A DNA stretch of 64,000 bases, taken from contig CP067345.1 in the NCBI GenBank assembly GCA_020641055.1, positions 3,775,317-3,839,316 of the forward strand, read 5' to 3'. A program made the position numbers and the translations under genes. The notes under the pieces are model-generated. The model was given only the letters and a program-made list of their open reading frames with translations. It did no database searches and was not told the origin of the DNA. The stretch is from Clostridioides sp. ES-S-0010-02. Lineage in GTDB: Bacteria > Bacillota > Clostridia > Peptostreptococcales > Peptostreptococcaceae. Of the stretch, positions 13,819 to 26,016 are shown piece by piece (within the stretch, counting starts at the first letter, position 1; every line of letters begins with the position of its first letter).

Positions 13819-14355
13819 CTACTCAAAAATACCTATTTGTGTAAAAGGAAACACTCTTAAAATAACTTTTCCTTTAATATTTTGTTCATCCACTAATCCT
13901 ACTTCTTTATACCTACTATCTAAACTTACTTCTCTATTATCTCCCATAGCAAATACTTTACCTTGAGGAATCACCATATCAATCTCGCCTTCAGTATAAT
14001 TATCATGTATATATGAAACTTCATTTAATAACTTACCATTTATATAAACCTTAGAATCTTTAATTTTTAAATGGTCTCCTGGTACACCTATAACCCTTTT
14101 TACTAACTCTTTTTTTCTCCCATTATCTTGCAACAAGTCAGTCTTAAATATCATTATATCTCCACATTTTGGTTCTGATAATTTATATGTTATTCTATTT
14201 GCCACTAAGTAATCGTGTGGTTTAAGTGTTGGGTACATTGATTCTCCATTTACTAATGTTGGTTTTATAAAGCGAGTTATAATAAATGCCAAAAAAAGTG
14301 CAGTAATAATTATTTTTATCCACTCTACAATCTCTTCTTTAATAGTTTCATTCAT
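13819..14355 (-). CDS. lepB: Signal peptidase I, second tandem copy
   Basis: 178 residues, SipS-type. One N-terminal membrane anchor (about 13-32) is followed by NGESMYPTL with the catalytic Ser39, and LVKRVIGVPGDH with the catalytic Lys86, then MGDNREVSLDSRY (box E). It removes signal peptides from exported preproteins on the outer face of the membrane. It is closely similar along its full length to the copy at 14530-15066, which lies 174 bp upstream in the same direction, evidence of local duplication. It has its own ribosome site (AAAGGAG). The 3' end abuts the TIM-barrel gene. Confidence 0.94.
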   Translation of the reverse strand: MNETIKEEIVEWIKIIITALFLAFIITRFIKPTLVNGESMYPTLKPHDYLVANRITYKLSEPKCGDIMIFKTDLLQDNGRKKELVKRVIGVPGDHLKIKDSKVYINGKLLNEVSYIHDNYTEGEIDMVIPQGKVFAMGDNREVSLDSRYKEVGLVDEQNIKGKVILRVFPFTQIGIFE

Positions 14356-14529: not shown

Positions 14530-15066
14530 TTAGTCAATAGTTCCTATCTTAGAAAATGGATACAATCTGACTAGAACTTTTCCTAGAACGGTGTGCTCGT
14601 CGACCAATCCAACCTCATCGTATCTACTATCTAAACTTCTTTCTCTATTGTCTCCCATTGCAAATAATTTTCCTTCTGGAACTACTATATCAATATCTCC
14701 ATCAGTACGATTATTATGTATATAGGAAACTTCATCTAACAATTTATCATTTACATATACCTTGGAGTCTTTTATCTTTACATGGTCACCAGGAACCCCG
14801 ATAACTCTTTTTACTAAATCTTTTTTCTTTCCATTTTCTTCTGTTAAGTCGGTTTTGAATACTATTATATCTTTGTATTTTGGCTCTCCTACTTTGTACG
14901 CAATTCTATTGACTATCAAATAATCACGTTCTACAAGCGTAGGATACATTGATTCTCCTTTAACTATTGTTGGCACTATAAAACGCGTTATTGCAAATGC
15001 CAAAACAAGAGCTATGACAATCACTTTTATCCACTCTACAACTTCTTTTTTAACTGCTTCACCCAC
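14530..15066 (-). CDS. lepB: Signal peptidase I, first tandem copy
   Basis: 178 residues when started at the GTG at 15064-15066, the same length as its paralogue. GAGGAG lies 9 nt before this GTG, whereas the TTG 8 codons upstream would place that ribosome site inside the gene. It has one N-terminal membrane helix, then KGESMYPTL (catalytic Ser) and LVKRVIGVPGDH (catalytic Lys), and MGDNRERSLDSRY. It differs from the copy at 13819 mostly in conservative substitutions. The 174-bp spacer between the copies contains a small hairpin (GTTGTCT 14443-14449 with AGACAAC 14459-14465) without a T-tract. Confidence 0.94.
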   Translation of the reverse strand: MGEAVKKEVVEWIKVIVIALVLAFAITRFIVPTIVKGESMYPTLVERDYLIVNRIAYKVGEPKYKDIIVFKTDLTEENGKKKDLVKRVIGVPGDHVKIKDSKVYVNDKLLDEVSYIHNNRTDGDIDIVVPEGKLFAMGDNRERSLDSRYDEVGLVDEHTVLGKVLVRLYPFSKIGTID

Positions 15067-15166
15067 TAAAATCGTCTCCTCTGTGTTCAATATTAAGTCA
15101 ATCTACAGCAAAACTAATCTACCATAAACTTACAATATAAATATTATACTTCTTTTTTCTAATAGT

Positions 15167-22703: not shown

Positions 22704-22759
22704 TAAAAAAAAAGTAATGTTAACATTTCTTAACATACATTAAAAAATGTTAACATTAC
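22704..22759 (-). terminator. Terminator of secreted-protein gene, copy 1
   Basis: GTAATGTTAACATTT (22714-22728) pairs with AAATGTTAACATTAC (22745-22759), a perfect 15-bp stem. The A-run at 22704-22713 gives a minus-strand U-tract. The same terminator is repeated behind copy 2 at 23361-23414. Confidence 0.85.
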
Positions 22760-22814: not shown

Positions 22815-23210
22815 TTAACGACCATAGAAACCTATCAATCCATTTCCATTGTCTATTCTAATAGGTTTCATAATCTTTAAACCTTCATTTTTTATCTTTT
22901 CTAAATCTTTTTCCATACTCTTAATTGTATTTTCAAGGTCTTGTGAACTTAAGTCTTTAACTTGTGTAGTGTCTTTAGCATACTCTTTTAATTCTTCAAT
23001 ACGCTTAGCATATTCTTCATAAGTGTAATACTCAACTCCATATTTTTCTAAGTCAGCAGGCTCAGTTATTCCTGATTTTATTAGAGAATCAAATTTATCT
23101 AACGTAATATTAGATACATCACTACTTCCATCTGCAAATACTGCTCCTGTTCCTCCTAATACTATAGCAGATGCCATCATTGTACTTATAAGGGATTTTT
23201 TTATTTTCAT
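22815..23210 (-). CDS. Small secreted protein, copy 1 of a tandem pair
   Basis: 131 residues. Residues 1-26 are a signal peptide (MKIKKSLISTMMASAIVLGG, then a V-F-A cleavage site). The ~105-residue mature part is charged and mostly helical, with SSDVSNITLDKFDSLI, GVEYYTYEEYAKRIEEL and a heptad-like LEKIKNEGLKIMKPI tail. No cell-wall anchor, lipobox or cysteine is present. I do not recognise the family. It is closely similar to the copy at 23622-24029, except for the last ~8 residues, where a one-base indel shifts the frame. The promoter carries two dyads shared with the BlaI-like gene, so repression by that regulator is inferred. The GC content matches the neighbours. Confidence 0.88.
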   Translation of the reverse strand: MKIKKSLISTMMASAIVLGGTGAVFADGSSDVSNITLDKFDSLIKSGITEPADLEKYGVEYYTYEEYAKRIEELKEYAKDTTQVKDLSSQDLENTIKSMEKDLEKIKNEGLKIMKPIRIDNGNGLIGFYGR

Positions 23211-23260
23211 AACTCATATTCCTTTCTTAGAGATTTATTTGGGTAGTGTAGTTCACAATG

Positions 23261-23320
23261 ACTATTGCAATAGTTATTAACTACACCTTTAGACTATCAT
23301 AATAGTCATATTTATGTCAA
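23261..23320 (-). promoter_or_regulatory. Promoter with two dyad operators, secreted-protein copy 1
   Basis: TTGACA (complement 23315-23320), an 18-bp spacer and TAGTCT (complement 23291-23296). Dyad A, GACTATCATAATAGTC (23292-23307), lies between and over these elements. Dyad B, the perfect palindrome ACTATTGCAATAGT (23261-23274), lies just downstream of the start point. The centres are 32 bp apart. An outer GTGTAGTT/AACTACAC pair (23246-23253, 23279-23286) brackets dyad B. The same plan recurs at copy 2 and at the blaI-like gene. Confidence 0.75.
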
Positions 23321-23360
23321 GTATTTCTACAACGTTTTTTAGTAAAAATCCATATTTTGA

Positions 23361-23414
23361 ATAAAAAAAGTAATGTTAACATTTCTTAATACATATAAAA
23401 AATGTTAACATTAC
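23361..23414 (-). terminator. Terminator of secreted-protein gene, copy 2
   Basis: GTAATGTTAACATTT (23370-23384) and AAATGTTAACATTAC (23400-23414), the same 15-bp stem as behind copy 1, with an A-run at 23363-23369. It lies ~210 bp after the copy 2 stop codon; the intervening 23415-23621 stretch is AT-rich with no gene seen. Confidence 0.8.
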
Positions 23415-23621
23415 AAACTGGGTTTAATACTTTTACTTTGACTAGATTTATTTTTATACTATTTAATTTGTTTATTTTTTACTTCTCTATCTTCATATAG
23501 ACTTTAAGCCTTTTGTTATCGTTTATTTGTTACTTGTTTTGTTCTTGTTTACTATGTTTAATTACGCTTATTTAGTTTTTTAAATACTTTTTCCACCTAT
23601 ATCTAAAAAATTTAATATTAA

Positions 23622-24029
23622 TTATTCAGCTCTAGATAAAGAAACTGCCAATTGAGTTCCATCTTCATTATCTATTACGATAGGTTTCATTATCTTTAAG
23701 CCTTCAGTTTTTATCTTTTCTAAATCTTTTTCCATAATCTTAATTGTATCTTCAAGGTCTTTTGAACTTACATCTTTAACTGCTGAAGAGTCTTTAGCAT
23801 ATGCTTTTAACTCTTCAATCTGCTTAGCGTACTCTTCATAAGTATAATACTCAACTCCATGTTTTTCTAAGTCAGCAGCATCAGTTACACCTGATTCTAC
23901 TAGAGATTTAAACTTAGATAACTCAATATTAGATACATCGTCATTTCCACTTGCAAATACTGCTCCTGTTCCTCCTAGTACCATAGCAGATACCATCATT
24001 GCACTTATAAGGGATTTTTTTATTTTCAT
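23622..24029 (-). CDS. Small secreted protein, copy 2 of a tandem pair
   Basis: 135 residues, with signal peptide MKIKKSLISAMMVSAMVLGG and a V-F-A cleavage site near residue 26. The mature region parallels copy 1: SNIELSKFKSLVESGVTD, GVEYYTYEEYAKQIEEL, a Lys-rich helix and LKIMKPIVIDNEDG, then a distinct C-terminus AVSLSRAE. About 819 bp separate the two start codons, and the promoter, gene and terminator are duplicated as a unit. It lies directly downstream of the M56/BlaI-like pair in the same direction but has its own promoter. Function is unknown; induction by whatever signal the M56 protein senses is inferred. Confidence 0.88.
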   Translation of the reverse strand: MKIKKSLISAMMVSAMVLGGTGAVFASGNDDVSNIELSKFKSLVESGVTDAADLEKHGVEYYTYEEYAKQIEELKAYAKDSSAVKDVSSKDLEDTIKIMEKDLEKIKTEGLKIMKPIVIDNEDGTQLAVSLSRAE

Positions 24030-24079
24030 AATTTATATTCCTTTCTTAGAGATTTATTTGGGTAGTGTAGTTCATTATG

Positions 24080-24139
24080 ACTATTGCAATAGTTATTTAC
24101 TACATCTTTAGACTATCATAATAGTCATAATTGTGTCAA
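24080..24139 (-). promoter_or_regulatory. Promoter with two dyad operators, secreted-protein copy 2
   Basis: TTGACA (complement 24134-24139), an 18-bp spacer and TAGTCT (complement 24110-24115). Dyad A GACTATCATAATAGTC is at 24111-24126 and dyad B ACTATTGCAATAGT at 24080-24093, centres 32 bp apart, identical in plan to copy 1. Confidence 0.75.
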
Positions 24140-24160
24140 GTATTTCTATAAAATTTTTTA

Positions 24161-24208
24161 ATAAAAAATACTATCTCAAAATAAATTTAATTATTTTAAG
24201 ATAGTATT
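24161..24208 (-). terminator. Terminator of the M56/BlaI-like operon
   Basis: AATACTATCTCAAAAT (24167-24182) pairs with ATTTTAAGATAGTATT (24193-24208) with one G-U-type mismatch. The A-run at 24161-24168 gives a minus-strand U-tract, 35 bp after the M56 stop codon. Confidence 0.75.
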
Positions 24209-24242
24209 CCTAATTCTCAACCCATCCTTATTTGTCATATAT

Positions 24243-25565
24243 CTAGTTGCTTTCAGAATCTTTATACTGCAATTTATTATTTGTTAAAATCTTCATACTT
24301 TTTGTTACAGATATCTTCTTAGAAATATTATCAGTTGGTACAACTGAATACTTTGACATATTAGAATACACTTCTTCTACATCAACCTTTGAAGTAATTT
24401 TCTGCATTTTATATGTTTCTGATGTACTTAAATCAATGCTTTCATCACTTTTAGCTGATAATCCCACAGAAATATTTGTATTATTTATCTTAGATTCTAT
24501 TTTTAATGGCTGACCTCCTATTGAAAAGTCGTTTTTATTACTTTGCTCAATTTCCATTAGATTAAAAGATTCAACTTCATCAATTTCTTTATTTCCAGTT
24601 GCAAAAACAACACTAGTCCCACAAATTAACACAGCTGAAACTAAAAAAGTAATATAGGTTGATTTTTTAAACTTCATAACATTAACTATTCTTTCTTCTA
24701 TCTTTGTCTTTCCAAATCCGTTATAAAGTGTCATTGGAAATGTATTATGTTCCTCTGCTAAACTTATAAGCGTAGTTGCATAATCAGCTCTATATTCTTC
24801 ACCAACTATACTCATTACCTTTTCATCACAACTAAATTCTATATCTTTATTCAATAAAAAAAGCATTACCCAAACTAAAGGATTGAACCAATGGACAGCA
24901 AGAGCTACAATCATAAACAACTTCAATATATTGTCAAACCTATTGATATGAACCAATTCATGAGTTAAGACAAAGTTTAGAGTTTGGTTATTGCTATAGT
25001 CCATTTGTTTTGGCAAAATAATATTCGGTTTTAAAATACCAGTTGTAAGAGGTGTTTTAGTAAATTCAGAAATACAAACAAAGAATTTTCTAAGACCTCT
25101 ATTATCATATGCCCACTTTTTAATAAATTCATGATTTTTTATATGTATCGAAGTTTTAAAAAGATTAATCGTCCTGGTATACTTAAAGCATAAAAACATA
25201 ATAAAAGTAATAGAAATTCCAAACGTTAAAATACTTGATATTTCCAATGCTGTAAAATTCTCAAGATTGAATAAAGCCTTAGAATCTCCAAAATTATTCT
25301 TACTGATAGAATTATTATTTTTCTTAATTGAATAATCCACAGCGGATGCATTTCCCAATTGAGCATCAAAATTTGACTCAATAATGCTATAAATACTAAA
25401 AGTAGAATTTAAACTTACTGGTACTAAAAGTTTAAACAAAACAACTAGCCATAATAATACAAATACTTTTTTAGGCAATTTTTTAAACAAACATGCTCTT
25501 ATAAAAATAACAATTAAAATTAAAACCCCAGAAGTAACACTCATTTCTAACAATTTAGTGAACAT
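24243..25565 (-). CDS. M56 family (BlaR1/MecR1-like) sensor metalloprotease without penicillin-binding domain
   Basis: 440 residues. Two N-terminal membrane helices (about 8-26, 33-51) and one near 110-128 precede a cytoplasmic zinc protease domain: HELVH at 202-206, with a distal Glu in DIEFSCDEKV (241-250). A last membrane helix (~303-322) leads to a ~118-residue external tail. In BlaR1 this tail is a ~250-residue beta-lactam sensor with SxxK; here it is short and has no such motif. The helix and junction (KKSTYITFLVSAVLICGTSV, then V-F-A-T-G-N) resemble the signal peptide end of the two secreted proteins. It lies 10 bp after the BlaI-like gene, so proteolytic removal of that repressor is inferred. 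Confidence 0.87.
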   Translation of the reverse strand: MFTKLLEMSVTSGVLILIVIFIRACLFKKLPKKVFVLLWLVVLFKLLVPVSLNSTFSIYSIIESNFDAQLGNASAVDYSIKKNNNSISKNNFGDSKALFNLENFTALEISSILTFGISITFIMFLCFKYTRTINLFKTSIHIKNHEFIKKWAYDNRGLRKFFVCISEFTKTPLTTGILKPNIILPKQMDYSNNQTLNFVLTHELVHINRFDNILKLFMIVALAVHWFNPLVWVMLFLLNKDIEFSCDEKVMSIVGEEYRADYATTLISLAEEHNTFPMTLYNGFGKTKIEERIVNVMKFKKSTYITFLVSAVLICGTSVVFATGNKEIDEVESFNLMEIEQSNKNDFSIGGQPLKIESKINNTNISVGLSAKSDESIDLSTSETYKMQKITSKVDVEEVYSNMSKYSVVPTDNISKKISVTKSMKILTNNKLQYKDSESN

Positions 25566-25575
25566 TAATCTTACC

Positions 25576-25935
25576 TCACTTTAATTTCTCAACAATCTGT
25601 TTAAGTTTTGTAATCTCATCACTTGAGAGATTTTCTTTATTAATAAAAGCTGAAAGAAATTTCTCTGAAGACCCTCCAAACATTTTATTAATTAAGCTTT
25701 CTGTTTCATGCTTCTGAACTTCTTCTTTGCTTATTAAAGGTCTACAAACAAAGTTTGGTTCAATTCTTTCTATTGCACCTTTTGATACTAATTTTTTTAT
25801 AACTGTATACGTAGTGTTTCTATTCCATCCTGTTTCTTCCTTTAAAACTTTTACTAATTCCCCTGCTTTACTTTCTCCTATCTCCCATAGAACTTCCATC
25901 ACCTTAAGTTCTGAATCAAATAATTTTATTTCCAT
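25576..25935 (-). CDS. BlaI/MecI/CopY-family repressor
   Basis: 119 residues. The N-terminal winged helix is typical: LFDSELKVMEVLWEIGESKA, then WNRNTTYTVIKKLVSKGAIER. The C-terminal ~45 residues form the dimerisation region. The ATG at 25933-25935 (MEIKLFDSELK) has GAGGAG at good spacing; the open frame reaches 13 codons further, into the operator. The family binds dyads as a dimer and is cleaved after M56 signalling. Its promoter holds two dyads of the same type and spacing as those of the secreted-protein genes, so autoregulation plus control of those genes is inferred. No beta-lactamase gene is nearby. Confidence 0.9.
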   Translation of the reverse strand: MEIKLFDSELKVMEVLWEIGESKAGELVKVLKEETGWNRNTTYTVIKKLVSKGAIERIEPNFVCRPLISKEEVQKHETESLINKMFGGSSEKFLSAFINKENLSSDEITKLKQIVEKLK

Positions 25936-25957
25936 ATAAAATCGCTCCTCAAATATG

Positions 25958-26016
25958 GTTATCACAATAGTCAATATTATAATTTAAAACTATCACAGTA
26001 GTCTATGTGATGTCAA
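25958..26016 (-). promoter_or_regulatory. Promoter with two dyad operators, BlaI-like/M56 operon
   Basis: TTGACA (complement 26011-26016), an 18-bp spacer and TAGTTT (complement 25987-25992). Dyad A ACTATCACAGTAGT (25989-26002) and dyad B GTTATCACAATAGT (25958-25971) have centres 31 bp apart, matching the layout at the two secreted-protein promoters. The common core is ACTAT-n4-ATAGT. Confidence 0.7.

What the first reader, a model, noticed from the sequence alone, without database searches (positions are those of the whole stretch)
22815..26016. Compact BlaI/M56 regulon controlling two small secreted proteins instead of a beta-lactamase
Seen: three promoters (two for the duplicated secreted-protein genes, one for the BlaI-like/M56 operon) share TTGACA-18-TAGTYT cores and two dyads of the type ACTAT-n4-ATAGT whose centres are 31-32 bp apart, three helical turns. 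Known: BlaI-family dimers bind such dyads and M56 proteases lead to their cleavage. Inferred: the repressor controls itself and both secreted proteins, so the output of the signal is a pair of unknown exported ~105-residue proteins. No beta-lactamase or PBP gene is present. This is my best candidate for an undescribed signalling system.
Basis: partly seen in the sequence, partly recalled or inferred. Interest (0 to 1): 0.78.

Follow-up and report, generated by a model that had tools for sequence, protein, structure and literature searches.

The report
Repressor-protease switch for secreted proteins
In Clostridioides bacteria, the group of the gut pathogen C. difficile, a penicillinase-type repressor and its membrane protease most likely switch on one or two small secreted proteins instead of an antibiotic-destroying enzyme, and those proteins may be a loose copy of a sensor domain.

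Summary
A BlaI-family repressor gene, an M56 membrane-protease gene and two duplicated secreted-protein (sec) genes share paired dyads, 31-32 bp apart, in three promoters. The arrangement is conserved in 8 of 8 Clostridioides genomes searched (13 of 13 sec and 8 of 8 blaI promoters), and a whole-genome search of those 8 genomes finds the pair only at this locus (20 places, backward control 0). The regulatory inference is strong but in silico.

It is less undescribed than claimed. Paired GACTAT-type operators and tiny BlaI regulons were shown by DAP-seq and EMSA in Clostridium thermocellum (PMC8457756). The C. difficile ortholog of the secreted protein, CD630_05490, has a crystal structure (6N7M), is found in culture supernatants and rises on WalR overexpression. 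I found no paper linking it to the BlaI/M56 pair.

New here: the sec domain also occurs in a lipoprotein beside a two-component system (solid match) and, suggestively, as the exodomain of an M56 protease whose BlaI is 62% identical and has the same paired operator. The output may be a detached receptor domain. Signal and function are unknown. New variant of a known kind.

The parts
25576..25938 (-). blaI: BlaI/MecI-family repressor, 120 aa
   Evidence: PF03965 95.7 bits, cut-off 22.6
24243..25565 (-). m56: M56 membrane metalloprotease, 440 aa, no penicillin-binding domain; hypervariable tail after the last membrane helix
   Evidence: PF05569 155.5 bits, cut-off 31; NCBIfam BlaR1 113.7 of 400 bits; alignment
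23622..24029 (-). sec2: secreted protein, 135 aa, ortholog of CD630_05490
   Evidence: 6N7M match E 4.2e-43
22815..23210 (-). sec1: duplicate of sec2, 131 aa
   Evidence: 6N7M match E 9.9e-40; 73% identical to sec2
25989..26002 (.). blaI operator 1, 1 mismatch, over the -10 element
25958..25971 (.). blaI operator 2, 2 mismatches
26011..26016 (-). -35 TTGACA of the blaI promoter
   Evidence: read from sequence
25987..25992 (-). -10 TAGTTT of the blaI promoter
   Evidence: read from sequence
24112..24125 (.). sec2 operator 1, exact dyad, over the -10 element
24080..24093 (.). sec2 operator 2, exact dyad
24134..24139 (-). -35 TTGACA of the sec2 promoter
   Evidence: read from sequence
24110..24115 (-). 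-10 TAGTCT of the sec2 promoter
   Evidence: read from sequence
23293..23306 (.). sec1 operator 1, exact dyad, over the -10 element
23261..23274 (.). sec1 operator 2, exact dyad
23315..23320 (-). -35 TTGACA of the sec1 promoter
   Evidence: read from sequence
23291..23296 (-). -10 TAGTCT of the sec1 promoter
   Evidence: read from sequence
23370..23414 (.). terminator-like inverted repeat after sec2
   Evidence: arms of 19 nt, 95% complementary
22714..22759 (.). terminator-like inverted repeat after sec1
   Evidence: arms of 20 nt, 95% complementary

Best explanation
A dedicated BlaI/M56 envelope-signalling switch. BlaI dimers sit on two dyads per promoter (one over the -10 element, one downstream of it) and repress the blaI-m56 operon and, through better-matched operators, one or two secreted proteins. 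An extracytoplasmic event acting on the M56 protease's last membrane helix or tail activates it, BlaI is cleaved, and the secreted proteins are made. The secreted protein belongs to a small helix-helix-hairpin domain family found also in a lipoprotein beside a two-component system and, suggestively, as the exodomain of an M56 protease with a closely related BlaI; so the output most likely binds or modulates the kind of envelope component that the receptor lineage senses. Shown by computation here: genes, operators, conservation, confinement of the regulon, lipoprotein homology. Published elsewhere: BlaI binding to paired GACTAT-type sites; secretion of the C. difficile ortholog. Inferred: binding here, cleavage, activation from outside, what the secreted protein does.
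For: Operators at the same positions in 13 of 13 sec and 8 of 8 blaI promoters; the TA and AT pairs at half-site positions 4 and 5 are complementary in 42 of 42 operators. The pair occurs only at this locus in 8 of 8 genomes, backward control 0. The promoters of the 7 other BlaI paralogs that I read lack the pair; the canonical blaI has TTACAAATGTAA. BlaIs with this operator from 5 genera (9 rows) group apart from 7 own paralogs, 97/96. The pair lies directly upstream of BlaI/M56 genes also in G706, G640, G796 and G551 and upstream of BlaI in G277. Published DAP-seq and EMSA. Ortholog in supernatants of 630 and R20291. Sec versus the G950 lipoprotein: 33% over 76 aa, E 4e-8, 0 of 5000 shuffles. 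Sec versus the G277 M56 tail: 33% over 135 aa, E 2e-6; profile E 1.7e-7.
Against: No binding or expression data in this organism. CD630_05490 responds strongly to WalR (log2 3.87 and 4.51; -1.84 on knockdown), while tags 05470 and 05480 do not occur in that paper's main text, so WalR induction is not obviously through BlaI. The Clostridioides M56 tail shows no sec domain itself. The G277 match leans on the membrane segment: without it 12.4 bits, 1 of 5000 shuffles as good; paralog L083 6.9 bits, 27 of 5000; an unrelated coiled-coil protein (L085) scores 21.0 bits with the same model; with the full-length model an unrelated protein matching by its signal peptide (L147) scores 27.5 bits against 29.5 for G277.
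Confidence: 0.65

Rival explanations
1. The secreted proteins are governed mainly by WalRK or another envelope regulator; BlaI only fine-tunes them, and the M56 protease answers a separate signal.
For: Strong WalR response of CD630_05490; the blaI/m56 tags are not named in that paper's main text.
Against: No WalR box with up to 1 mismatch (consensus TGTWAH-N5-TGTWAH) in 300 bp upstream of 13 of 13 sec genes; conserved paired operator over the -10 element in 13 of 13.
Confidence: 0.2
2. The switch is as described, but the secreted proteins are ordinary envelope effectors (binding a host peptide, lysozyme or the wall) with no descent from a receptor domain; the resemblance to M56 tails is signal-peptide and helix composition.
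For: Weak mature-part match of the G277 tails, and unrelated proteins (L085, L147) scoring about as well; no sec domain in the Clostridioides M56 tail.
Against: The G950 lipoprotein shares the mature domain (0 of 5000 shuffles); with it added to the model, G277 L064 reaches 22.8 bits, 0 of 5000 shuffles; alignment starts exactly at the last membrane helix in an M56 whose BlaI and operator are related.
Confidence: 0.4
3. It is a beta-lactam-responsive system like BlaR1 that happens to control secreted proteins.
For: BlaI and M56 family membership.
Against: No penicillin-binding exodomain; a separate blaI with an M56-plus-Transpeptidase protein exists in the genome and its promoter has a different dyad.
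Confidence: 0.1

Closest known systems
BlaI_0696 and BlaI_1845 of Clostridium thermocellum (PMC8457756, section 25 read)
   Same: Two inverted repeats per target promoter; BlaI_1845 half-site GACTAT as here; autoregulation; regulons of three and one operons; BlaR1-type partner; hypothetical proteins among the targets
   Different: BlaI_0696 repeats are GTCTAT, 5 nt apart (here GACTAT/ATAGTC, 4 nt apart); no link made there to a known secreted protein or to a receptor exodomain
BlaI-BlaR1 and MecI-MecR1 (PMC7593790 passages; PMC7253601 passages)
   Same: Repressor plus M56 protease; the receptor exodomain resembles class D beta-lactamases, that is, an enzyme type such systems can make
   Different: No penicillin-binding exodomain here; outputs are not a beta-lactamase or PBP; operator differs from TACA/TGTA
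CD630_05490 of C. difficile 630 (6N7M; PMC10586155, PMC3841139, PMC9210968 passages)
   Same: Ortholog of sec2; secreted
   Different: In the passages seen it is a hypothetical protein or a WalR-regulated gene; no BlaI/M56 link
CD630_23900-23880 of C. difficile (PMC9210968 passage)
   Same: BlaI-like and BlaR-like genes with an exported product
   Different: Product is a putative peptidoglycan hydrolase, cotranscribed with the regulators

Membership tests
BlaI/MecI repressors (PF03965) | Family profile over its curated cut-off | tested here: met
   95.7 bits, cut-off 22.6
BlaI/MecI repressors (PF03965) | Dyad operators in own and target promoters | tested here: met
BlaI/MecI repressors (PF03965) | Binds the operators and is inactivated by cleavage | not testable with these tools
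   needs bench work
BlaR1/MecR1 beta-lactam receptors | M56 protease domain with HEXXH | tested here: met
   PF05569 155.5 bits; HE[LM]VH in 8 of 8 orthologs
BlaR1/MecR1 beta-lactam receptors | Penicillin-binding sensor domain | tested here: not met
   No Transpeptidase match in Pfam; NCBIfam blaR1_generic 113.7 of 400 bits
Paired-GACTAT BlaI regulons (C. thermocellum type) | Two inverted repeats with GACTAT-type half-sites per target promoter, small regulon | tested here: met
   published motif
Paired-GACTAT BlaI regulons (C. thermocellum type) | Repressor in the same clade as BlaI_1845 or BlaI_0696 | not tested
   those sequences were not fetched
CD630_05490 family | Sequence relation to 6N7M | tested here: met
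   E 4.2e-43 (sec2) and 9.9e-40 (sec1)
M56 exodomain of the G277 type | Similarity of the mature domain beyond composition and signal peptide | tested here: inconclusive
   L064 1 of 5000 and L083 27 of 5000 shuffles as good with the sec-only model; 0 and 12 of 5000 with the G950 domain added; unrelated L085 scores 21.0 and 19.4 bits in the two

The most novel reading that the evidence does not exclude
The system's main output is its own receptor's sensor domain, cut loose: an ancestral M56 exodomain was duplicated as a secreted protein, the last membrane helix becoming the signal peptide; the receptor's own tail then decayed into a hypervariable linker; and the free domain now closes an extracellular feedback loop as a ligand decoy or co-receptor. 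It would be a small-protein counterpart of the relation between the BlaR1 sensor and class D beta-lactamases.
Probability: 0.25. Interest if true: 0.75.

Novelty: new variant of a known kind. Interest (0 to 1): 0.55.

Why it matters
C. difficile secretes CD630_05490 in both strains examined, its structure is solved, and I found no function for it. This work gives it a likely dedicated regulator and receptor, testable by simple gene removals, and a family context in signalling exodomains. It also extends paired-operator BlaI regulons from one thermophile to a group of BlaIs in several clostridial genera, which bears on the open question of what BlaI/M56 pairs without a penicillin-binding domain sense and make.

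Full report
WHAT IS THERE. On the minus strand lie blaI (25938-25576), m56 (25565-24243), sec2 (24029-23622) and sec1 (23210-22815). BlaI matches Penicillinase_R at 95.7 bits and the protease matches Peptidase_M56 at 155.5 bits, both over cut-off; the protease has no penicillin-binding domain and scores 113.7 of the 400 bits required by NCBIfam's BlaR1 model. sec1 and sec2 are duplicated transcription units: promoter, gene (a 300-nt stretch at 85% DNA identity) and a terminator-like hairpin each.

IS IT MORE THAN CHANCE. A lone dyad is not: 30 places against 24 for the backward pattern in 4.26 Mb. The pair is: 20 places in 8 of 8 Clostridioides genomes, every one at this locus (13 before sec genes, 7 before blaI; G007's blaI promoter was missed by one base), none for the backward control. 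Positions are fixed: -96/-64 in 13 of 13 sec promoters and -64/-33 in 8 of 8 blaI promoters. Invariant columns in the 13 sec promoters: operator 1 11 of 16, spacer 7 of 16, operator 2 14 of 16, -49 to -20 15 of 30, -140 to -111 9 of 30; in the 8 blaI promoters: operators 13 of 16 each, spacer 9 of 15, upstream 0 of 40. The sec operators are the better dyads, which would fit looser self-control and tighter target control (inference).

WHERE IT OCCURS. In a search of 61 genomes (own, genus, family, order) the sec protein was found in 8, all of this genus. Blocks fetched from the other 7 genus genomes all hold the order ornithine-cyclodeaminase-like, 203-aa lipoprotein-like, DUF975, blaI, m56, sec. 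BlaI is 92-99% identical to the window's, those three neighbours 85-99.5% (86% for a second lipoprotein-like copy in G004), but M56 only 63-86%, and its tail after the last membrane helix is a hypervariable Ser/Lys/Asn-rich stretch. G006 is C. difficile proper by my reading: its single sec protein matches 102 of 104 residues of the 6N7M fragment. G004, G006 and G007 have one sec gene, the other five two; the three lack iorAB in the fetched blocks. Downstream of its sec gene G006 keeps a degraded copy of the sec1 promoter region (72 nt at 74%, E 6e-7) and a 15-residue stretch like the start of iorB (E 0.011), so C. difficile may once have had two.

WHAT IS ALREADY KNOWN. The C. difficile ortholog of sec2 is CD630_05490: crystal structure 6N7M at 1.78 A (PMC10586155, passage; sequence match); among the hypothetical proteins found in supernatants of both 630 and R20291 (PMC3841139, table passage); log2 change 3.87 and 4.51 on WalR overexpression and -1.84 on wal knockdown, predicted exported (PMC9210968, passages). 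CDR20291_0476 is sleC (passages), so by gene order _0474, _0473 and _0472 should be sec, m56 and blaI (inferred). Searches for CD630_05470, _05480, _05490, _05500, CD0547 to CD0550, CDR20291_0472 to _0476 and 6N7M returned no paper whose listing or passages that I saw connect the BlaI/M56 pair with the secreted protein; the library lacks most subscription papers. The operator type is published: in C. thermocellum, BlaI_0696 (GTCTAT inverted repeats 5 nt apart) and BlaI_1845 (GACTAT) were mapped by DAP-seq and tested by EMSA; the three BlaI_0696 targets each hold two inverted-repeat sites, and the BlaI_1845 operon holds four half-sites as two pairs; the authors call this a strict requirement and give regulons of three and one operons (PMC8457756, section 25 read). 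So the regulatory architecture is a known kind.

WIDER FAMILY. In 391 genomes of the class the paired pattern occurs in 7: this one; G706, G640, G796 and G551, each directly upstream of a BlaI/M56 gene pair; G761 (three places: two related membrane proteins and a lipoprotein-like protein); and G727 (a secreted protein that looks SIMPL-like to me). The backward control occurs in 5 of 391, so the count is not evidence; the location is. Start-to-start spacing is 26-28 bp in most of these (G640 also 30) and 29 bp in G277, where a BlaI 62% identical to the window's has the same two dyads before it. BlaIs with this operator (9 rows, 5 genera) group apart from seven own paralogs with 97/96 support (the G796 row was lost). 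The canonical blaI elsewhere in the genome has a TTACAAATGTAA dyad, so the two systems look insulated (inference).

THE LINK BETWEEN OUTPUT AND RECEPTOR. In the own genome the only match of sec2 at E <= 0.001 outside the sec genes is the last membrane helix and start of tail of the M56 protein (36% over 50 aa, E 7.7e-4); that segment matches the sec profile in 6 of 8 genus genomes. In G277 the M56 protein is sec-like from that helix onward: BLASTP 33% over 135 aa, E 2e-6; sec profile E 1.7e-7; profile comparison with the two G277 tails, probability 95.3 on a two-row profile. A second G277 M56 has a related tail (42% between the two tails). In G950 a lipoprotein-like protein in a stretch that also encodes a histidine kinase and a response regulator holds the domain: 33% over 76 aa, E 4e-8, probability 95.5.

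CONTROLS ON THAT LINK. Mature domain only, sec-only model: G950 27.2 bits, 0 of 5000 shuffles as good; G277 L064 12.4 bits, 1 of 5000; L083 6.9 bits, 27 of 5000 (an earlier run with 1000 shuffles each gave L064 12.1 and L083 6.7 bits). As whole open frames among those held, the same model gives G950 21.4, unrelated coiled-coil L085 21.0, L064 10.0, L081 8.9 and L083 3.9 bits. With the G950 domain added, L064 reaches 22.8 bits (0 of 5000) and L083 7.6 (12 of 5000), while as whole frames L085 scores 19.4 and L064 18.7. With the full-length sec model, L064 scores 29.5, the unrelated L147 (a signal-peptide match) 27.5, and L083 17.9 bits. I read this as firm homology with the G950 domain and suggestive, not proven, homology with the G277 M56 exodomain. 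The sec model has main helices 64-79 and 89-108 and then a hairpin.

MECHANISM. Repression by paired dimers over the -10 element and downstream of it; activation of M56 from outside; BlaI cleavage; output of secreted protein. In classical systems the BlaR1 sensor resembles class D beta-lactamases (PMC7593790, passage), so a receptor domain related to an output has a precedent. By analogy the sec domain probably binds the kind of envelope ligand that an M56 exodomain of the G277 type binds; whether it is a decoy, a co-receptor or an effector is open. The WalR effect has no obvious WalR box (none with up to 1 mismatch in 300 bp for 13 of 13), so it may be indirect, perhaps through an envelope change that M56 senses; but the main text of that paper does not name tags 05470 and 05480, which speaks against simple joint derepression unless the weaker blaI operators keep the change below the paper's 4-fold cut.

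VERDICT. Observation confirmed; regulatory reading probable; novelty moderate: a new variant of the paired-operator BlaI regulon whose output is a small secreted domain, possibly of receptor ancestry.

Noticed in passing
window 13819-14355 and 14530-15090 (-): Two tandem genes, 67% identical, that look like type I signal peptidases to me; of interest because the M56 last helix resembles a cleavable signal peptide.
   Followed up: partly
L051 (G006), interval after the single sec gene: Degraded sec1 promoter region and a short iorB-like stretch; the published growth-phase sRNA RCd4 is listed next to CD0550, which by gene order borders this interval.
   Followed up: partly
L121, L135, L138 (G761): Three paired-dyad promoters before two related membrane proteins and a lipoprotein-like protein: possible unlinked targets of this BlaI group.
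   Followed up: partly
L122 (G727): Paired dyads before a secreted protein that looks SIMPL-like to me.
   Followed up: no
L083 and L120 (G277): A second M56 gene with a related tail; no BlaI frame of at least 100 aa lies beside it in the fetched stretch.
   Followed up: partly
L146 (G950): Lipoprotein-like protein with the sec domain, in a stretch with a histidine kinase and a response regulator.
   Followed up: partly
L049 (G004): The 203-aa lipoprotein-like gene upstream of DUF975 is present twice.
   Followed up: no
G000:C1, whole genome: Twelve Penicillinase_R matches, eleven over cut-off (one of those with internal stops), and seven M56 matches: many separate BlaI- and M56-type genes in one genome.
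   Followed up: partly
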